From IMG/VR virus record IMGVR_UViG_3300027800_000347, positions 1 to 64,000 of that record: a stretch of DNA of 64,000 nt. One strand, 5' to 3'. A program made the translations under genes and the position numbers. Below, piece after piece: positions 18,735 to 64,000 of this stretch. The notes under the pieces were generated by a model that was not told where the DNA came from, searched no databases, and saw only the letters and a list, made by a program, of their open reading frames with translations. The stretch is from a virus. Each line of letters begins with the position of its first letter. The stretch's first letter is position 1.

Positions 18735-20551
18735 TGCTGGATCTGTTCGGCGGACAATACGGCGGCCCGGGCCATGGCGACGAGCTCATCATCGATTCGT
18801 TCGCCGGGGGCGGCGGGGCGTCAACGGGGATCAAGTCCGCTCTCGGGCGCGATCCGGATGTGGCGCTCAACCATGACCCCATCGCCCTGGCCATCCACCG
18901 GGCCAACCACCCCGGCAGTCGCCACTACTGCCAGGACATCTTTTCCGTCGAGCCGAACCACGTCACGAACGGCCGCCCGGTGGGGTTGTTGTGGGCCAGT
19001 CCGGACTGCACTCATTTTTCCAAGGCCAAGGGCGGCGCGCCGAAGCGGGATGCAAAAATCCGCGACCTCGCGTGGGCCGTCGTGAAGTGGGCCAAGCAGG
19101 CCCGGCCCCGGGTCATCATCTTGGAAAACGTGGAGGAATTCGCCACCTGGGGACCGCTCACCGACCGGGGCGAGATCATCAAGGGCCGGGCGGGCGAGAC
19201 GTTCCGGGCTTGGCTGCGGCAGTTGCGACGCCTCGGATACCGGGTTGAGTACCGGGAGCTTCGGGCCTGTGACTACGGGGCCCCGACGATCCGCAAGCGG
19301 TTTTTCCTCATCGCCCGTTGCGACGGTCAGCCCATCGTCTGGCCGAAGCCGACCCCTCGGCCGGAAGCCGTGAACGAGGACGGGGTTGTCACGAAATGGG
19401 CGACAGGTCACGGCCTCACGTTGAAAGATTTGCAGCGGCTTCCTTCGTACCGCACGGCGGCGGACATCATTGACTGGTCCATCCCGTGCCCGTCGATCTT
19501 CGAGCGCAAGCGGCCGTTGGCTGAAAATACCCTGCGCCGCATTGCCGAGGGCATCAGGCGGTACGTCATCAATGCGGCCGAACCGTTCATCGTGACCTAC
19601 TACGGGCCGAAGCGGGTCGGGGATTTTCGGGGCAACGGCATCGAGGAGATGCTTGGGACGCAAACCACGGAAAACCGGCACGCCCTGGTGACGCCGTACA
19701 TCGTCAAGCCGAACCACGCATACCCGCATTTTCGGGGGAACTCGGTTGATGAGCCGCTGCGCACCGTGACCGCGAGCGAACCGGGCTTTGCCCTTGCGGC
19801 TCCGGTTTTGGTTGGGGCGGGAGGCCCGGTCTACGGGGGAAAACCCCACCCGGTAGATCGGCCCATGAACACGCTCATGACCGAAAATCACCACGCCCTG
19901 GTGTCCGCCTTCCTGGCCCAGCACAACGGCGGCCCTCGCAACGACCGGTTGGCCGGGCGCCCTGCGGATGCGCCCATGTCCACGATCACGGCCACGGGCA
20001 GCCAGCAAGGCCTTGTGGCGGTCCATGTGCAACGCGATTTCGGCAACAGCGTCGGGCACCCGGCGTCCTCCCCATGCGGGACGGTGACATCCGGGGGTGG
20101 CGGCAAGTCCAGCTTGGTCGCTTCGCACCTGGTCAAGTTGCGCGGCACATGCCGACACGGCCAGGCCGCAACCGACCCCATGCCCACGGTCACGGCCGGG
20201 GGGATGCACATCGGCGAGGTGCGGGCGTTTCTGGTTAAGTATTTCGGGTGCGGCATCGGGCAGGATGCGCGCGATCCGCTCCATACGGTCACGACCAAGG
20301 ACCGCTTTGGCCTCGTGACCGTCCAGGGCGAGGACTACATCATCGCGGACATCGGCCTGCGCATGCTCACGCCCCGGGAGCTGTTTTTGGCCCAAGGATT
20401 CCCGCCGGATTACGTCATCGATCCCGTCTACAACGGCAAGCCGCTCCCGAAGTCCAAGCAGGTCAGGGCATGCGGAAACTCTGTGTGCCCGCCGCTGGCG
20501 GAGGCCCTGGTGCGCGCGAACTGCCACGACATGGCGGAGGTTGCGCCGTGA
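18731..20551 (+). CDS. C5-cytosine DNA methyltransferase with repeat-built recognition region
   Basis: A 606-aa SAM-dependent cytosine-5 methyltransferase. Motif I is FAGGGGAST (24-32), motif [17 protein letters not shown] with nucleophile Cys93, motif VI ENVEEF (132-137), and the late motifs ([30 protein letters not shown]) close the C-terminus. Between about 290 and 550 lie roughly seven imperfect 35-45-residue repeats, each with P-x-x-TVT-like and (A/G)LV-like elements, where a normal enzyme has its target-recognition domain. Phage methyltransferases protect DNA from host restriction. It overlaps both neighbours by 4 bp. Confidence 0.88.
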
Positions 20552-31682: not shown

Positions 31683-31835
31683 ATGGCGATTCCGAACAGG
31701 AGAGGTGTGGCGAGGGTGACGGGACAGGCAGCCGCCAGAACGGGTGGCGCCCGTGGCGCGAACCTCGTTCGTGCGACGGCGAAGCGCAGCGGAGGCAGCC
31801 CCACGACCACGAGGGGCAAGAAGTTCCGCCGTTAA
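31683..31835 (+). CDS. 50-aa arginine-rich protein
   Basis: A tiny, extremely basic protein (MAIPNRRGVARVTGQAAART ... RGKKFRR) with one of the strongest ribosome sites in the window (GGAGGTGA). It contains almost no acidic residue, resembling protamine-like or ribosomal-type nucleic-acid binders. Its stop overlaps the end of the convergent PP-loop gene by 4 bp. Confidence 0.55.
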   Translation: MAIPNRRGVARVTGQAAARTGGARGANLVRATAKRSGGSPTTTRGKKFRR

Positions 31836-33217
31836 ACCACAAACGCTTCGAGCTTGGCGTCAGGCCTCGCTTCCGGCCGGTAGAAATATGTGGTCGGCGG
31901 GAGGTCAACGCCAAGCCGGGGCGCAAGATCATGGCCCCAGAGGCGGCCGTTGCAATGCAGATCAAGCCAGCCAGCTTTTTTCAAAAACCGCTCGGCGAGG
32001 GAACCCGAAAGGGGAGTGGCCCTGGGGAACGCCTTGAGCAGCGCCTCGTAGTCCGCGAGGCATTCCGTTTCCGGGTCGCCTGTGGCCTCCAGGTCGGCCA
32101 AGGGATTCGGGGTCTTCACGGGGCGGCCTGCAAGCCTGGAATATTCCAGGCCCGGCACCTTCAGGCCCATCTTTTGAGCCACAAAGCCGCCGTTCAGGAA
32201 CATATCCCCATGGGAAACGAGCTTGAGCGCCCCCAAGAAGTGGTCTTTTTGCGCCCGATCCTCAAACACGATTTCAAATCGGGAGGCATCGGAAAAATAG
32301 ATGGACACCCAAAAAGACGGCTCGGTCATCGAGGCGTCCTTGTTGGCCATTTGCTTGGCCTGGGCATTCAGGCGCGAATAGCGGTCGGCCGTGGGCATGG
32401 CGTTCGCCGCAGCCTTTTTGGGCTGGGGCCTGGAGAACGTGAAGCGTTTTTGCGGCTCGGCCTTTGGCGCATCCATCGCGGCCAGGGACTCGGCCTTGGG
32501 CAGCGCCGCCATGGAGCCGTATCGCTCAATCGCCCGCTCCAGGCGAAAAATCTCCAGATCCATCATCGGGAAAAATTCCAGGCACCGGGCATAGTCCCTG
32601 GGGAAGTGCTTTTTGAGGCCCCACGCATACAGCAGATACAGGCCGTCGAACGTGCGGCCGAAGGCCTTGTACTCCGGGGAAAGTTTTACGTCGTTCGCCT
32701 TGAGGGCGCCGAGGATGTCGGGCTTTTTCCAGTCCCAAATCGGGTAGAAAACCCGGCGCCCATTGTTCCAGGCCCCGTGCTTCTTGATCGCCGATGCGCG
32801 CTGGATCGAGTCGGCCGCACGAACCCCGATGGCGGTCCAGGAGTTTTCCGGGATGCCGGCCGAAATTTCAGCCAACCGGCTCACATCGTCCCAATGAAAC
32901 TGCGGCAGGGCGGCCGCGTGGAGCACCGGATATCTCTCCGGGGCCTGAAAAACCATCCCGTCCAACGCCATGTGCAGCACGGGCGAGGGCAGGCGAACGA
33001 TCCGCGCGCCCATCTTTTTCTCGCAGTAGGCCAGGTATTCCTCAACCACCTCAAGCCCGGGCACCATATAGTAATAATACGGAACGATTTCAAAGTGTTC
33101 CCGAAGCGCAAAAAAGCATCCCCAAGCGTCCTTGCCTCCGGAAAACGAGAGCAGGCACTTCTTTGGGTCCGGGCTATTAGCCCGAACATGCTGGATTATT
33201 GCGTCTAACGATTGCAT
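31832..33217 (-). CDS. PP-loop ATPase / PAPS-reductase-like protein
   Basis: A 461-aa protein on the strand opposite to its neighbours. The N-terminal half (about 1-260) is an adenine-nucleotide alpha-hydrolase of PAPS-reductase type with the PP-loop SFSGGKDAWG (24-33) and a later IGVRAADSIQRA. The C-terminal half (about 310-461) is unrelated and unassigned. Phage and island members of this group (IbrA-like, DndC-like) are linked to sulphur or DNA-modification chemistry; no ParB-like (IbrB) or Dnd partner gene is visible. Placement between lysis and terminase genes suggests cargo. Confidence 0.75.
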   Translation of the reverse strand: MQSLDAIIQHVRANSPDPKKCLLSFSGGKDAWGCFFALREHFEIVPYYYYMVPGLEVVEEYLAYCEKKMGARIVRLPSPVLHMALDGMVFQAPERYPVLHAAALPQFHWDDVSRLAEISAGIPENSWTAIGVRAADSIQRASAIKKHGAWNNGRRVFYPIWDWKKPDILGALKANDVKLSPEYKAFGRTFDGLYLLYAWGLKKHFPRDYARCLEFFPMMDLEIFRLERAIERYGSMAALPKAESLAAMDAPKAEPQKRFTFSRPQPKKAAANAMPTADRYSRLNAQAKQMANKDASMTEPSFWVSIYFSDASRFEIVFEDRAQKDHFLGALKLVSHGDMFLNGGFVAQKMGLKVPGLEYSRLAGRPVKTPNPLADLEATGDPETECLADYEALLKAFPRATPLSGSLAERFLKKAGWLDLHCNGRLWGHDLAPRLGVDLPPTTYFYRPEARPDAKLEAFVV

Positions 33218-33232
33218 AGGCGGTATTTTTAT

Positions 33233-33694
33233 ATGGAAAAAGAAAAAAAGCAAGAAAAAAAGCCAAAGAAAAAGAAAAAAACTAAACGCACTAATCGCGG
33301 TAAGTACAGCCAGTCCAGGGTGATCAAGGCTATCGAAGGGACAGGTGGTATAATAACCGAGATTGCTACGAAGTTGGGTTGTCAACGTGCGACGGTTTAT
33401 GCATACCTTGAAAAATTTCCCAAGGTTAAAAAAGCATACGACGACGAAAGGGACTCCGTAACAGATGTTGCCCGTGGAAACATTGTAGAAGCAATTTTTA
33501 ACGGCGACCTTGAAGTCTCTATGTGGTGGGCGTCAAGGCGTGACCCTGACTTCACGACAAAGCAGCAAATCCAGGCTGATGTCAACAACACTGGCGGCGT
33601 GCTCATGGTTCCGGGCGTCGCCACGGATGCCGACGCATGGAGCAAGGCAGTCCAGGAGCAGCAAGCCGCCATATTGGGAAAGGCGGATGGCTAA
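33233..33694 (+). CDS. Terminase small subunit
   Basis: A 153-aa protein with a Lys-rich N-terminus (MEKEKKQEKKPKKKKKTKR), then a DNA-binding HTH (IEGTGGIITEIATKLGCQRATVYAYLEKFP, about 28-57) and a helical oligomerisation region. It sits directly before the large subunit, which it overlaps by 8 bp. It would recognise the packaging site. The A-runs encoding the Lys tract are potential slippery sites. Confidence 0.8.
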   Translation: MEKEKKQEKKPKKKKKTKRTNRGKYSQSRVIKAIEGTGGIITEIATKLGCQRATVYAYLEKFPKVKKAYDDERDSVTDVARGNIVEAIFNGDLEVSMWWASRRDPDFTTKQQIQADVNNTGGVLMVPGVATDADAWSKAVQEQQAAILGKADG

Positions 33695-38008: not shown

Positions 38009-38083
38009 ATGCCTGATTCCGGCGACTACGACGTCCCGGCCATGGACGCCGGGCGAGGGGTCGGGGCCGAGGCGCGGGCCTAG
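38009..38083 (+). CDS. 24-aa possible leader-sized gene
   Basis: GGGGAACC precedes an ATG encoding MPDSGDYDVPAMDAGRGVGA and a few further residues. Very short acidic product, ending 3 bp into the convergent XRE gene. May be non-functional. Confidence 0.25.
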   Translation: MPDSGDYDVPAMDAGRGVGAEARA

Positions 38084-38283
38084 TCGTCAAGGAAGAGGTC
38101 TTTTGGGCGAAGATCAAGGGCGCGGGCGATTTTCCTCAATGTCTTTAGGGTGCAGCAATCAATGCCCTCTTCGCCGTTTCGACAGGCGCGAACAAGCGTC
38201 GTTCTCGCCAACCCGGTTTTTCTCTCCATGTCGGACAAGGACAGGCCTTTCACGGCCATGAAGTCGCGGACACGGCTTTGCAT
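38080..38283 (-). CDS. XRE-family regulator next to the repeat arrays
   Basis: A 67-aa single HTH protein: MQSRVRDFMAVKGLSLSDMERKTGLARTTLVRACRNG and a C-terminal helix (LRKIARALDLRPKDLF), a complete XRE domain. It is transcribed away from a consensus promoter (38397-38425) that leads into the repeat array, so it is well placed to control that locus. The start at 38283 is the most compact; upstream in-frame starts exist. Confidence 0.75.
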   Translation of the reverse strand: MQSRVRDFMAVKGLSLSDMERKTGLARTTLVRACRNGEEGIDCCTLKTLRKIARALDLRPKDLFLDD

Positions 38284-38396
38284 CGGTTCCAGGTGGATGA
38301 TTTCCCCGGCCCGGTCAAGGCCGTTTTTATTATTCGTCGCGTGGAGCATGGAGCATAAAAAATCACGCCAGAGAGGAAAAATCAAGCTCGAAGTGG

Positions 38397-38425
38397 TTGA
38401 CGGCAGATAAGCGGTAGTGTAAAAA
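38397..38425 (+). promoter_or_regulatory. Promoter of the TIGR-like array / Tas-like locus
   Basis: TTGACG (38397-38402), 17-bp spacer, TAAAAA (38420-38425). A start near 38432 would put the first recognisable 9-bp repeat (38449) about 17 nt into the transcript. The 113 bp between it and the XRE start also leave room for regulator binding. Confidence 0.6.
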
Positions 38426-38448
38426 GTCATGAACGGCCCGAGGTAGGG

Positions 38449-38655
38449 TGGAACCCAGGATATTCATGCGAGCCATTGGATGGATGAAACCCATATATGC
38501 CGTGCGAGCCACGGTTTCCCTTAATCACAGGCCCGTCGTGCGAGCCAGTTTTGAAGTGAACCCCGGGACCAGAATGCGAGCCAGGTTGCCCATGAAATCC
38601 AAAATAGCATTGCGAGCCACACCACCCTTGAAGCCCACCCCCTTTATGCGCCCCC
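38449..38655 (+). repeat. TIGR-like guide array 1 (18-bp phase, 36-bp unit)
   Basis: Two 9-bp repeats alternate with unique 9-bp spacers in perfect 18-bp phase. Repeat A, TGCGAGCCA, is at 38467, 38503, 38539, 38575 and 38611, with a degenerate last copy TGCGCCCCC at 38647. Repeat B, TGAAACCCA-like, is at 38449, 38485, 38521 (decayed), 38557, 38593 and 38629. Eleven spacers result, e.g. TTGGATGGA, TATATGCCG, GTTTTGAAG. The 36-bp full unit with two short spacers is the TIGR array design. The last copy is followed by the ribosome site of the Tas-like gene. Confidence 0.85.
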
Positions 38656-38671
38656 AAACCCAGGAGGACCA

Positions 38672-39511
38672 ATGAGACCCGACACCCCGGAACGTGAACT
38701 GGCGATTCAGCGGTTGAACAAGTCCATCCGCGACTACGACGCCCTGAACAAAGTCATCACGGGCATGAAGAACCGCCTCCACGCCCTGAACCCGGACGCC
38801 GACCCGAAACACGACCCGTTTTTGAACGGCACAAAGCAGTCCTCCGGGCTTGAACAGATCAAGGCCCGACTGTCCCGGGCCATCGAGAAGGATTTGTTGG
38901 CGTGGCCGATCTACACGGAGTGGATGCAGCACGTTCCCGGCATCGGCCCGGCCATCGCGGGGCGGCTCATCATGTTGTACTACTACAGGTTTACGCCCGT
39001 GTGCGCCTGCGGGGAGGTCCTTGAAAAGAAGGACGGCACTTTCTGGTGCCCGGCGTGCGAGAAGTCGGTCAAGGGCGACGGCGTGACCAAATACCGGATC
39101 GAGCTTCGGGATTTTCCGAACATCTCCAAGTGGTGGGCTTTCATGGGCATGGCTGTCCTGGACGGCAAGAAGCCGCACCGCGAGAAGGGAAAGCAGCAAA
39201 ATTGGTCGAGCGTCGGCCGTGCCACCTGCTACCTCATCGGGGACCAGTTCAACCGCCAGACCACCAAGACCCCCTATGGCGCGTTCCTGCTTGAGCGCAA
39301 GGCCCGTATCGAGCGGCTACAACCCGAGGTCAAGAAGGGGCATCGCCTGAACCGCGCCCGGCATGAGGCGGCGAAACTGTTCCTGGCCCACTTCTGGACT
39401 GTGGCCCGGACGCTGGACGGCCTGACCGTGACGCCTCCCTACGCGGGCACGATCATGGGGCACACCGGGATCGTTGAGCCGTTCCACTTCGGGGTGAAGC
39501 AGGCGGCGTAG
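38672..39511 (+). CDS. Tas-like protein with Nop / IS110-C-terminal-like HhH domain
   Basis: A 279-aa protein between two repeat arrays. After a helical N-terminus (1-80) comes a helix-hairpin-helix HVPGIGPAIAGRLI (87-100), then an inserted zinc ribbon (Cys111, Cys113, Cys126, Cys129), then FPNISKWWAFMGMAV (148-162) and RATCYLIGDQF (183-193), matching the order of elements in the C-terminal domain of IS110 transposases and Nop domains of box C/D RNPs. No RuvC/DEDD or HNH nuclease is seen, so it fits a nuclease-less (TasA-type) RNA-guided DNA-binding protein. CCAGGAGG precedes the ATG. Confidence 0.75.
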   Translation: MRPDTPERELAIQRLNKSIRDYDALNKVITGMKNRLHALNPDADPKHDPFLNGTKQSSGLEQIKARLSRAIEKDLLAWPIYTEWMQHVPGIGPAIAGRLIMLYYYRFTPVCACGEVLEKKDGTFWCPACEKSVKGDGVTKYRIELRDFPNISKWWAFMGMAVLDGKKPHREKGKQQNWSSVGRATCYLIGDQFNRQTTKTPYGAFLLERKARIERLQPEVKKGHRLNRARHEAAKLFLAHFWTVARTLDGLTVTPPYAGTIMGHTGIVEPFHFGVKQAA

Positions 39512-39512
39512 G

Positions 39513-39989
39513 TTTTTGCCAGAGTCCGAGTGAAGCCCATAGACATTGTGCGAGCCACTGGCCCGATGAAACTCATGCGAACGCTGCGAGCCATGTCAAC
39601 GCTGAAACCCAACCCCCGGGTGCGAGCCATGAACTTGATGAAACTCAACGGCGCATTGCGAGCCATCGAGCAGATGAAACCCAGAAAATGATTGCGAGCC
39701 AGTGTTTATGTGAACCCCATGAGTGAAGTGCGAGCCATTGCTCGCGTGAATTCCATCGCTAACGTGCAAGCCAGACATGTTTTGAAGCCTAAAACCGCCA
39801 TGCGAGTCAATTTGTGCCTGAAACCCGTTTTAGGGGTGCGAGCCAGCGGCCAAATGAAATCCATCGGGCATGTGCGAGCCAAAAAAGGAGCGAACCCCAT
39901 TTAGTATTTGCGAGCCAGCGTCAATGTGAAACCTACTCCCCCTGTGCGAGCCATGGCGAAAGTGAAACCTACGCTTCCAGTGCGCCCTT
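39513..39989 (+). repeat. TIGR-like guide array 2 (18-bp phase, about 13 units)
   Basis: Begins two bases after the Tas-like stop and keeps perfect 18-bp phase for 477 bp. Repeat A (TGCGAGCCA) is at 39549 and every 36 bp to 39945, with end copies TTTTTGCCA (39513) and TGCGCCCTT (39981); internal variants are TGCAAGCCA (39765) and TGCGAGTCA (39801). Repeat B (TGAAACCCA, variants TGAAACTCA, TGAATTCCA, TGAAACCTA) runs from 39531 to 39963. Twenty-six different 9-bp spacers lie between. It ends directly at the ribosome site of the 40003 gene, so array and genes share one transcript. Confidence 0.88.
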
Positions 39990-40002
39990 AAAAGGAGAAC
40001 CC

Positions 40003-40629
40003 ATGAAGATCAACCATCTGAAAGCGCAGTACGACAGTAAGCCCATCGCGGACATTGAGGCCGCGATTCGAGCCTGCCAGTCCGAAGAATTGACCTCCCA
40101 CCGGAAGTACATCGGCATTCTGGCCTACCTGGAGCATACCGGGCGCTTCAAGGAGAATCCGGTCTATACCAAGGCCGACTTTGACACCTACCTTCGGGAG
40201 TGCTTCGACATTTCCATGACCAAGTTCCGGGAGTCGAAACTGCTTTACGTCAAGTTTCCGGATCAGGCCGAAAAGTACGGCATCGGCTACGTCTCCCGGG
40301 CGGCCAAGCAGTGCGGGCAGGACAAGCTCCCGACCATCTTCACCGCCCTGCGCCGCGAGGAAGCCAAGCGCAACGCGCCCGTTTCGTCCGAGGTCAAAGA
40401 CGCGATCCTGGACGCGCATGCGAAGCCCAAGAAGCTCATCCAGTATATCAATTGGGAGGCCAGATACCGCGAGGCCGCCGAGGAAATCCAGGTTTTGCGC
40501 GCCGAAATGGCCGAGAAGGACAAGACCATCGAACGCCTGCGGGCGGCCCTGGCGAAGCAGAAGGGCCACGGCGCGGCGTTTGTGCCGGTCACGATGGACG
40601 GCCAGCGGAGGGAGGCCATAGCACAGTAG
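40003..40629 (+). CDS. Unknown protein downstream of guide array 2
   Basis: A 208-aa protein starting MKINHLKAQYDSKPIADIE after AAAAGGAG. The N-terminal 130 residues are helical with a segment (YLRECFDISMTKFRESKLLYVKFP) resembling phage DNA-binding modules; residues about 140-195 form a coiled coil (EEIQVLRAEMAEKDKTIERLRAALAKQ). No nuclease motif is seen. It is cotranscribed with the array and Tas-like gene and could be an accessory partner, or an ordinary phage gene that happens to follow. Confidence 0.5.
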   Translation: MKINHLKAQYDSKPIADIEAAIRACQSEELTSHRKYIGILAYLEHTGRFKENPVYTKADFDTYLRECFDISMTKFRESKLLYVKFPDQAEKYGIGYVSRAAKQCGQDKLPTIFTALRREEAKRNAPVSSEVKDAILDAHAKPKKLIQYINWEARYREAAEEIQVLRAEMAEKDKTIERLRAALAKQKGHGAAFVPVTMDGQRREAIAQ

Positions 40630-40653: not shown

Positions 40654-41847
40654 TCATAGGGGCCACTCCGGAAACAGCTTGCGAACCTCTCCGCTCCCAA
40701 CAGACCGGGAAAACAGCTTGTAATTGCCAGTCTCCCTCCTGACCCTCCCGGCGACAATGGCCGGACTGATCTTGAGAGCTTCTGCGGTCTGAAAGACGAA
40801 TCTCAGCTTGGTTCGATCTTTGGCAGGCGTCGCCTCCCATATTTCAGACGGGATCGCCACATCAGCCGCAAAGGCGTTGGCTTGTTTCTCGACACCATCC
40901 ATGGTCCGCGCGTCGAGGTCATCCACCATAAAGCCGCCCGGCTCGACGTGTCCAAGGGCCAGATGCGCCAGCTCATGGAGCAAGGTGAACCAGAAGTTGT
41001 CCAGGCGGTCGAAGCGCAAGGACAGGCCCACGACGGCCCGACCATCAGGAACGAAGAGAGCCGCCCCATCCTGGTAGGTTTTGGGAAAGTGCTTCAGGAC
41101 GATCATGCAGACGCCGAATCTGGCCAGATAGTCACGGGCGAGGGCCGGGCCGCGAGGATCTGTGCTCAATTCCAAAAGACCCTTGAAAAAGACGTGGTCC
41201 AAGGCCGCCCGGTCGAAAACGCCACCCTGGGGAGTGGCGGAGGCGAGGCAGCGCAGGCCCCCGACCCAAGCCAGGACGCAGGACGCATCGCCACGCATTC
41301 CGAGGCGCGTGGAGGAACGGGCGCAAAAGGCCGGCGCCACAGAGGCAAAGCCGACTTGCTCCAACCATCGCCCTGCCTGTGCGCGCATTTCGTCCGCCTC
41401 GGCAACGGCTTTAAGCCACCCGCGCTTGACCATCTCTTTGGTGGCCGCGCCATTCAGGGCGGAACACGGGTCAGGGTTCGGATCGGGGTCATCGGGTTGG
41501 TCCTGAAACAGCGTATCCAAGGGGATACCAAGCCCGGCATGAAGGCGTCGGATCATCTCCAGGGTTAGCCGACGCTTACCAGCCAGAACTTCGGACACAA
41601 CCCCCTTGCTTCCGATGAAGGGTTCGAGGTCGCGCCGAGAAAGACCCTGCTGGTCCATGGCAAATTCTATGGCAGACAGGGGGGTCGGCTGCGGCATCGG
41701 GTAGTGCTCATCTTCATAGATTTCGACGAGCCGCGACCAATACTCCAGACGATCCAATTCCTCTGTCCCTGCTTTGGCGTGCATAAGGCTTTCAACCTTC
41801 GCCAGCGCCGCCTCATATTCTGCTTCGGTTTTAATCAGACGTTCCAT
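40654..41847 (-). CDS. HigA-like antitoxin fused to ImmA/IrrE-type metallopeptidase domain
   Basis: A 397-aa protein. An XRE HTH lies at about 58-110 (LSAIEFAMDQQGLSRRDLEPFIGSKGVVSEVLAGKRRLTLEMI), and a COG2856-type zinc peptidase near 290-330 has the active site LLHELAHLALGH. Antitoxins of this combined type (HigA-related, with ImmA/IrrE domain) pair with HigB toxins. It would neutralise the toxin encoded just upstream and repress the shared promoter through the palindrome at 42231. Confidence 0.85.
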   Translation of the reverse strand: MERLIKTEAEYEAALAKVESLMHAKAGTEELDRLEYWSRLVEIYEDEHYPMPQPTPLSAIEFAMDQQGLSRRDLEPFIGSKGVVSEVLAGKRRLTLEMIRRLHAGLGIPLDTLFQDQPDDPDPNPDPCSALNGAATKEMVKRGWLKAVAEADEMRAQAGRWLEQVGFASVAPAFCARSSTRLGMRGDASCVLAWVGGLRCLASATPQGGVFDRAALDHVFFKGLLELSTDPRGPALARDYLARFGVCMIVLKHFPKTYQDGAALFVPDGRAVVGLSLRFDRLDNFWFTLLHELAHLALGHVEPGGFMVDDLDARTMDGVEKQANAFAADVAIPSEIWEATPAKDRTKLRFVFQTAEALKISPAIVAGRVRRETGNYKLFSRSVGSGEVRKLFPEWPL

Positions 41848-63404: not shown

Positions 63405-63535
63405 CAGTTCGCAGATGGTTCGCAAGCAGTTCGCAAAATGCGAACCATCGTGAGCAAAAATGGGCAGATTTGAGCAAATCGAATTTGCCCTTGACGCCCC
63501 GCGAGGCCGCGTGTATCAAGCATTTCCGCCATTCG

Positions 63536-63608
63536 GCCAGCATAGCTCAGTTGGTAGAGCAGCTGATTCGTAATCAGCAGGTCTGGAGTTCGAGTCTCCA
63601 TGCTGGCT
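63536..63608 (+). tRNA. tRNA-Thr (anticodon CGT)
   Basis: Complete cloverleaf: acceptor GCCAGCA / TGCTGGC, D-arm GCTC-AGTTGGTA-GAGC, anticodon arm GCTGA-TTCGTAA-TCAGC with CGT, T-arm TGGAG-TTCGAGT-CTCCA. Discriminator T and an encoded CCA follow (63609-63611). It decodes ACG. Being at the prophage edge it is a candidate attachment locus, although orientation relative to the phage is not the classic one. Confidence 0.95.
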
Positions 63609-63621
63609 CCAGAAAGTTCAA

Positions 63622-63653
63622 GGGCTTGGGATGTTAAAATCCTAGGCCCTTTT
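63622..63653 (+). terminator. Rho-independent terminator after tRNA
   Basis: Stem GGGCTTGGGAT / ATCCTAGGCCC (two G-T pairs) with loop GTTAAA, followed by TTTTGATTTT, located just downstream of the tRNA CCA end. Confidence 0.8.
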
Positions 63654-63659
63654 GATTTT

Positions 63660-64000
63660 CCGCCCGGTTCCCCATCCATTCCCCAATGAATGTTGCAAAT
63701 GGCAAGCCCAAAAATGGTCCGTTTTGGGGATGGGTGCGTTTGCGTCTTTCCGGTATGATTTTCGAGAGGCGCCCTCCCCTTGGATATATGCATCCGCCGC
63801 AGAAAATCCGGTCCAGGTGAGAACCACCGCCCCGTTCTCTGCCGTCTGCGGTTTTATCCGAGCATTATGCAGGAGATTTCGCATAAATAGGCCGAGTAAA
63901 GCGCTGGAACTGGGAATTTACCCGGCTCCGTTGGTTTTCTGGGCCAATCCAGTCCGCCTCACCCGCTCGGCCTATATATTCAAGGCCCTAACTATTTCTT
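63660..64000. other. Right flank without recognisable gene
   Basis: No frame here has convincing coding character or a ribosome site. The AT content is higher than in the phage. It probably contains the right prophage/host junction or host intergenic DNA; the matching left junction lies outside the window, so the att core cannot be identified. Confidence 0.4.

What the first reader, a model, noticed from the sequence alone, without database searches (positions are those of the whole stretch)
38397..40629. Phage-borne TIGR-Tas-like RNA-guided system: promoter, array, Tas-like gene, second array, accessory gene
Seen directly: two arrays with alternating 9-bp repeats TGCGAGCCA and TGAAACCCA, each separated by a different 9-bp spacer, in unbroken 18-bp phase over 207 and 477 bp. 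Between them is a 279-aa protein whose HVPGIGP helix-hairpin-helix and downstream elements match the C-terminal domain of IS110 transposases and Nop-type RNA-binding domains. Known (from memory): TIGR-Tas systems have tandem interspaced guide RNA arrays with 36-nt units carrying two short spacers and Nop-domain Tas proteins, some with RuvC or HNH and some without nuclease. The 36-bp unit, two 9-nt spacers and Nop-like protein all agree. Inference: a nuclease-less (TasA-like) dual-spacer RNA-guided DNA binder used by a siphophage.
Basis: partly seen in the sequence, partly recalled or inferred. Interest (0 to 1): 0.95.

Follow-up and report, generated by a model that had tools for sequence, protein, structure and literature searches.

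The report
Two-protein RNA-guided system in a provirus
A virus lodged in the chromosome of a Desulfovibrio-like bacterium carries a TIGR-Tas system, a recently discovered kind of RNA-guided DNA binder that here has no DNA-cutting part, and it belongs to a branch in which the guide-binding protein has a zinc-ribbon and almost always travels with a second, undescribed protein.

Summary
Two arrays of alternating 9-bp repeats (edge TGCGAGCCA, loop TGAAACCCA) with 9-bp spacers encode 19 tigRNA units, and they flank a 279-aa nuclease-less Tas protein (TasA). TasA matches the solved TasR by sequence (E = 6e-30) and by predicted fold (E = 1e-10). All testable defining features of dual-repeat TIGR-Tas are met, so this is a member of a known kind.

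Beyond the finding:
(1) TasA belongs to a clade with a four-cysteine zinc-ribbon insert (23/23; 0/17 at this site in other array-linked Tas).
(2) The gene at 40003-40629 ("Acc") accompanies this clade in 21/23 records and 0/17 others. It matches no family or fold searched, and all 8 hits of a blind scan lay in TIGR loci.
(3) The arrays fill the gaps between genes, from a stop codon to the next ribosome-binding site.
(4) A phage with 95% identical TasA shares only two of about 19 guides.
(5) None of 578 guides matches its own record (0-1 mismatch).
(6) Spacers A and B of one unit show opposite strand composition, as dual-strand targeting predicts.

The record is a provirus beside tRNA-Thr in a Desulfovibrionaceae host. 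Natural targets remain unknown.

The parts
38397..38425 (+). candidate promoter TTGACG-17-TAAAAA ahead of array 1
   Evidence: read from sequence; weak, not reported by the consensus scan; stronger TTGACA-17-TATTAT in L003 at 9617
38431..38653 (+). TIGR array 1: six edge-spacerA-loop-spacerB units, 5'-truncated edge (38431) to 3'-truncated edge TGCGCCC (38647-38653)
38512..38538 (+). guide a1_3 (CGGTTTCCC-TTAATCACA-GGCCCGTCG), conserved in phage L003/G001 (17 of 18 spacer bases); T2-A7 replaces the usual G2-C7 box C/D pair
38672..39511 (+). tasA: 279-aa nuclease-less Tas protein (coiled coil, helix-hairpin-helix, Nop-type C-terminal domain)
   Evidence: phmmer to TasR 9mty 6e-30 and TasH 2.9e-8; AF2 pLDDT 84.6; Foldseek 9mty 1e-10, IS621 1e-2
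39002..39058 (+). zinc-ribbon insert of TasA (residues 111-129, CAC...CPAC), four cysteines invariant in the clade
   Evidence: alignment A3; 23/23 clade members, 0/17 others at this site; beta strands in the model
39513..39987 (+). TIGR array 2: thirteen units, 5'-truncated edge TTTTTGCCA to 3'-truncated edge TGCGCCC (39981-39987), begins 2 nt after the tasA stop
39738..39764 (+). guide a2_7 (TTGCTCGCG-loop-TCGCTAACG), diverged homologue in L003/G001 (15 of 18 spacer bases)
40003..40629 (+). acc: 208-aa all-helical protein with a long C-terminal helix, clade-specific partner gene of zinc-ribbon TasA
   Evidence: present in 21/23 clade records, 0/17 others; 8 of 8 scan hits in TIGR loci; no Pfam/PHROG/NCBIfam/PDB match
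38080..38430 (-). divergent Cro/C1-type HTH gene next to the array promoter (start codon uncertain), possible regulator
   Evidence: Pfam HTH_26 1.8e-8; a homologue only in G001, 1.4e-17, same place

Best explanation
This is a dual-repeat TIGR-TasA system of a temperate phage. Shown by sequence and fold: homology to Tas, array anatomy, no nuclease. Inferred from the published family: array 1, tasA, array 2 and acc are read as one transcript; TasA dimers bind the box C/D-like ends of the repeats, a host RNase cuts the edge repeats, and 19 36-nt tigRNAs result. Each tigRNA guides TasA to an 18-bp site, spacer A pairing with one strand and spacer B with the other. Without a nuclease the complex acts by binding and bending DNA, most likely blocking transcription or replication of foreign DNA such as rival phages or plasmids rather than the phage's own genome. 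Acc is proposed to bind TasA, perhaps at the zinc-ribbon, and to help it hold or spread on DNA. Identity is near certain; the biological role and the action of Acc are inference (about 0.4).
For: Sequence and fold homology to TasR/TasH. Array anatomy as published: UG...CCA repeats, A-rich loop, 9-nt spacers, truncated ends (PMC12045711). 43 of 47 records fetched for such arrays or for Tas encode a Tas. Box C/D pair 2-7: G-C in 598 of 648 loops, T-A in 7, including the conserved guide. Within a unit spacers A and B are less alike than shuffled pairs (z = -3.9) and anticorrelated in purine content (r = -0.14, z = -3.1); pairs across the edge repeat are not (z = -1.5 and +0.9). That is expected if A and B pair with opposite strands of one site, and it supports the edge/loop register. 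No self-targets: 0 of 578 guides match their own record with at most 1 mismatch. Near-complete guide turnover between phages with 95% identical TasA. Acc and TasA distances correlate, r = 0.83.
Against: No natural target was found: cross-matches among 42 virus records are at control level; a conserved guide has no exact site in 288 Desulfovibrionaceae genomes and only chance-like sites in viral contigs. Expression, processing and binding are not tested. The published nuclease TasR gave no protection against phage or conjugation in E. coli (PMC12045711), so a competition role is unproven. Spacer coupling could have another cause.
Confidence: 0.75

Rival explanations
1. TIGR-TasA acts on the host chromosome: tigRNAs silence host genes during lysogeny or infection.
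For: Two guides are conserved between two phages with otherwise different arrays, as expected for a constant target.
Against: The better conserved guide (a1_3/b1_6) has no exact dual-spacer site (gap 0-2) in 288 genomes of the host family, including three of the host's genus. The other 18 guides were not searched in host genomes.
Confidence: 0.2
2. TasA is an RNA-guided DNA bender that helps the phage's own recombination or integration (suggested in PMC12045711).
For: Temperate phage with an integrase at 1-1014, next to a tRNA-Thr locus that is an integration hotspot in related hosts; TasR bends its target by about 180 degrees (PMC12045711).
Against: No guide matches the phage genome, where an attachment or recombination site would be expected; array-bearing Tas records are diverse and the guides turn over, unlike one fixed att site.
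Confidence: 0.1
3. The arrays serve mainly in cis: they are mRNA leaders whose cutting by TasA and a host RNase controls tasA and acc expression, and the spacers are largely free to drift.
For: Arrays start a median 4 nt from a tasA/acc stop (25 of 41) and end with a truncated edge a median 31.5 nt before a tasA/acc start with an RBS-like motif (24 of 24); spacers differ almost fully between close relatives.
Against: Spacer lengths are kept at 9 nt, A and B of a unit are statistically coupled, and characterised Tas proteins use the spacers as guides (PMC12045711). A cis role may coexist with guiding.
Confidence: 0.15
4. Acc is the TasParB protein already described by Faure et al., so nothing in the locus is new.
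For: Same gene neighbourhood: a gene in operon with tasA, arrays upstream, between and downstream; both are said or predicted to have a C-terminal helical part, which in TasParB serves dimerisation.
Against: No ParB-type Pfam or NCBIfam model matches any of 21 Acc proteins. The model is entirely helical whereas the ParB/Srx domain is alpha/beta (own knowledge), and no ParB structure is found. TasParB loci are described with 10-nt repeats, here they have 9.
Confidence: 0.25

Closest known systems
TIGR-TasA, dual-repeat type (Flavonifractor plautii FpTIGR; Faure et al. 2025, PMC12045711)
   Same: Nuclease-less Nop-domain Tas; edge/loop repeats; 9-nt spacers; 36-nt units; arrays beside tas; viral or proviral location
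   Different: Zinc-ribbon insert with four invariant cysteines; [quoted passage not shown] arrays here end at ribosome-binding sites rather than at a predicted terminator
TasR of Thermoproteota archaeon LB_CRA_1 (PDB 9mty)
   Same: Best sequence and fold match; coiled coil, HhH and C-terminal domain; UG/CCA repeat boxes
   Different: TasR has an N-terminal RuvC nuclease; this protein has none and has the zinc-ribbon after the HhH helix
TasH of Salicola phage CGphi29 (PDB 21kl, 9w04)
   Same: Phage-borne Tas, homologous C-terminal domain, array downstream in the same repeat class (L009)
   Different: TasH has an N-terminal HNH nuclease
[quoted passage not shown]
   Same: Nop-type fold (Foldseek to IS621 E about 1e-2)
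   Different: No DEDD/RuvC domain, no single bridge RNA, guides come from arrays; no fibrillarin or L7Ae partner seen
TasParB-TasA operons (Faure et al. 2025, fig. S14)
   Same: A second gene in operon with tasA and arrays around both
   Different: Acc shows no ParB domain by HMM or fold; whether it is the same family could not be checked because the supplement is not held

Membership tests
TIGR-Tas (dual-repeat) | Tas protein with Nop/IS110-type RNA-binding domain | tested here: met
   phmmer 6e-30 to TasR and 2.9e-8 to TasH; profile 6e-41; Foldseek 1e-10
TIGR-Tas (dual-repeat) | Array of two alternating 8-12-nt repeats with 9-nt spacers next to the tas gene | tested here: met
   9-nt repeats and 9-nt spacers in 18-bp phase, 6 + 13 units
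TIGR-Tas (dual-repeat) | Repeats begin with UG (box D) and end with CCA (box C); loop repeat A-rich | tested here: met
   TGCGAGCCA edge, TGAAACCCA loop; pair 2-7 kept, with G-C to T-A replacement
[quoted passage not shown]
   TTTTTGCCA start of array 2 and TGCGCCC ends of both arrays; array 1 start is less clear (GAACGGCCC)
TIGR-Tas (dual-repeat) | Predicted rho-independent terminator after the array (typical, not universal) | tested here: not met
   Both arrays run into the RBS of tasA or acc; terminator scan at chance level. Not a defining requirement
TIGR-Tas (dual-repeat) | Array processed into 36-nt tigRNAs bound by Tas | not testable with these tools
   needs small-RNA sequencing or pull-down
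TIGR-Tas (dual-repeat) | tigRNA directs DNA binding, spacer A to one strand and spacer B to the other | tested here: inconclusive
   Indirect support only: strand-composition coupling of A and B within units; no natural target found
TasA (nuclease-less subgroup) | No RuvC or HNH domain | tested here: met
   279 aa; no Pfam nuclease match; the fold model shows coiled coil, HhH, zinc-ribbon and C-terminal domain only
TasParB-associated TasA | Operonic protein with ParB-like domain | tested here: inconclusive
   No ParB model in Pfam or NCBIfam for 21 Acc proteins, all-helical model, no ParB structure by Foldseek; HHpred-level search and published sequences not available
IS110 transposon | DEDD/RuvC catalytic domain and mobile-element ends | tested here: not met
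   no catalytic domain; arrays instead of a bridge RNA

The most novel reading that the evidence does not exclude
Zinc-ribbon TasA plus Acc is an undescribed two-protein subtype of TIGR-Tas. Acc is a dedicated DNA-binding or oligomerising partner, the zinc-ribbon is its docking site or a second nucleic-acid contact, and the guide arrays sit between the genes so that guide maturation also controls which messages are made.
Probability: 0.45. Interest if true: 0.75.

Novelty: new variant of a known kind. Interest (0 to 1): 0.6.

Why it matters
TIGR-Tas was published in 2025, and the role of the common nuclease-less TasA form and its natural targets are open questions. This locus places such a system in a temperate phage with an identifiable host family, shows a conserved protein partner and an extra domain for a TasA branch, and gives large-scale sequence evidence (648 units in 42 virus records) that guides avoid their own genome and that the two spacers of a unit behave as opposite strands of one site. 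Two guides kept between phages whose other guides differ give concrete target candidates, and the Acc gene gives a handle for finding out what TasA does once it is bound.

Tried and rejected
Self-targets in the window phage and in each of the array-bearing records: none. Cross-targets among 42 virus records: at control level. The one near hit in the window (a guide of G291, 1 mismatch, at 18944 in a methylase gene) is at the rate of the control pairings. Conserved guide a1_3/b1_6 in 288 Desulfovibrionaceae genomes: no exact site. Patterns for both conserved guides in viral contigs: scattered chance-like hits, no exact match to a2_7 or b2_8. Palindromic (operator-like) targets: rejected, since A and B within a unit are less alike than shuffled. 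Degenerate loop of a1_3: rejected, because T2-A7 is a compensatory pair also seen in G291. Acc as ParB: no support; a weak resemblance to DUF3102 phage proteins (Foldseek E 0.5) is only a lead. Close relatives of TasA or Acc in other collections: TasA not found in genome contigs, plasmids or the 288 host-family genomes (with no positive control in that set); in annotated phages only distant TasA relatives and no Acc.

Full report
Observation. The alternating repeats, the 18-bp phase, the array lengths (207 and 477 bp) and the 279-aa gene are all as described. An edge-9-loop match occurs 17 times in the window against 0.09 expected, with no shuffle near it. Reading the truncated ends as in the published systems, TGCGAGCCA is the edge and TGAAACCCA the loop repeat; array 1 holds 6 units and array 2 holds 13.

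What it is. The 279-aa protein matches the solved TasR (9mty, 6e-30) and TasH (2.9e-8) by sequence. Its AlphaFold2 model (pLDDT 84.6) finds TasR, TasH and then IS110-family recombinases (IS621, ISCro4) as nearest structures. No nuclease domain is present. Together with the repeats, which start UG and end CCA with an A-rich loop, this meets the testable definition of dual-repeat TIGR-TasA given by Faure et al. (PMC12045711).

Where it is. The window is part of a 65,547-bp virus record with integrase, terminase, portal, capsid and tail genes. Its right end, from about 63,430, is host chromosome: tRNA-Thr(CGT) and flanking genes, up to 92% identical to G035 and 87-88% to G036, two genomes of one genus of the family of the Desulfovibrionaceae MAG in L014. 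So it is a provirus. Copies of the tRNA 3' end in G035 and G036 mark the locus as a likely integration hotspot; the exact attachment site of this phage was not found.

Relatives. Scans of IMG/VR for the repeats and for TasA gave about 90 loci. 43 of 47 records chosen encode a Tas. For 42 virus records (40 of these plus the window record and G001) the full sequences were read and 648 units parsed. A second phage (L003/G001) with a different terminase carries the same cassette: divergent HTH gene, array, tasA (95% identical), array, acc (89% identical). Its guides are almost all different. Two are shared: a1_3/b1_6 (17 of 18 spacer bases) and a2_7/b2_8 (15 of 18). The odd loop of a1_3 (TTAATCACA) keeps the box C/D pair as T-A instead of G-C, a replacement also seen in G291.

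A zinc-ribbon TasA clade with a partner. 23 of 40 Tas genes in these records carry a C-x1-2-C...C-x2-C insert directly after the HhH helix; 0 of the 17 more distant Tas have it there. In 21 of the 23 records, and in none of the 17, the gene called Acc here lies on the same strand as tasA, most often within 0.6 kb. A blind scan with an Acc alignment returned 8 loci, all beside TIGR arrays, one of them new. TasA and Acc distances correlate (r = 0.83, 0 of 5000 permutations as high), which shared descent alone could also give. Acc has no Pfam, PHROG, NCBIfam or PDB match beyond generic coiled coil. Its confident model (pLDDT 87.8, pTM 0.59) is entirely helical and finds no solved fold. The paper reports a ParB-like partner for some TasA; by these tests Acc is not an evident ParB, but the published sequences could not be compared.

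Array placement. Within the clade, 25 of 41 arrays start between 21 nt before and 11 nt after the stop of tasA or acc (median 4 nt after), and 24 end with a truncated edge a median 31.5 nt before the start of tasA or acc, all 24 with an RBS-like motif. In the window both arrays run into the ribosome-binding site of the next gene. The same interleaving appears in the more distant Tas loci. Guides and messages thus probably share a transcript, so edge cleavage should also separate the messages (inference).

Targets. With the published rule (5'-spacerA-rc(spacerB)-3', gap 0-2; the order was derived here from the 8-nt 3' overhangs in the paper, and the reverse order was tested as well), none of 578 guides matches its own record with 0 or 1 mismatch. 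Across the 42 records the counts equal control pairings. The best conserved guide has no exact site in 288 host-family genomes. Natural targets stay unknown; the phage's own genome is disfavoured.

Signal in the spacers. Within a unit, spacers A and B are less alike than shuffled (mean identity 2.29 of 9, z = -3.9), their purine contents are anticorrelated (r = -0.139, z = -3.1), and composition matches that of opposite strands (z = 3.0). Spacers on either side of an edge repeat do not show this (z = -1.5, +0.9, +0.6). It holds without the largest record. This is what one expects if A and B come from opposite strands of one natural site, and it supports the edge/loop register independently of the repeats. 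The effect is small, several statistics were tried, and units within an array may not be independent, so it is support and not proof.

Mechanism. Shown: homology, anatomy, absence of nuclease, partner linkage. Inferred: one transcript, processing to 36-nt tigRNAs, dual-strand binding, silencing or bending without cutting, action on foreign DNA, and a supporting role for Acc. The likeliest role is competition with other mobile elements, with rapid guide replacement; host gene control, help to recombination, and cis control of the operon remain open.

Verdict. A true TIGR-TasA system, of a variant with zinc-ribbon and partner that the main text of the founding paper does not describe (no mention of zinc; [quoted passage not shown]).

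Noticed in passing
window 63430-64000 and L013: Right end of the record is host chromosome with tRNA-Thr(CGT); in related hosts 60-bp copies of the tRNA 3' end suggest an integration hotspot.
   Followed up: partly
G291 (L032, L045, L057, L059; contig IMGVR_UViG_3300036863_000086): One 72-kb virus record holds 118 tigRNA units in many arrays, with several loops of the T2-A7 type and some similar guides within it.
   Followed up: partly
L003 11259-11441: In the related phage a small ORF that looks Arc/ribbon-helix-helix-like sits between array 2 and acc, with array 2 ending just before its start.
   Followed up: no
window 31832-33385 (-): Phosphoadenosine phosphosulfate reductase-like gene inside the structural region of a phage from a host family known for sulfate reduction.
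   Followed up: no
window 40654-41847 (-): HTH + IrrE-type metallopeptidase gene directly after acc, opposite strand, a candidate lysogeny or stress regulator; absent from the other TIGR records.
   Followed up: no
L052 734-841 and L043 7797-7868: Exact or near-exact tandem duplications of whole tigRNA units, suggesting that arrays can grow by duplication followed by divergence.
   Followed up: no
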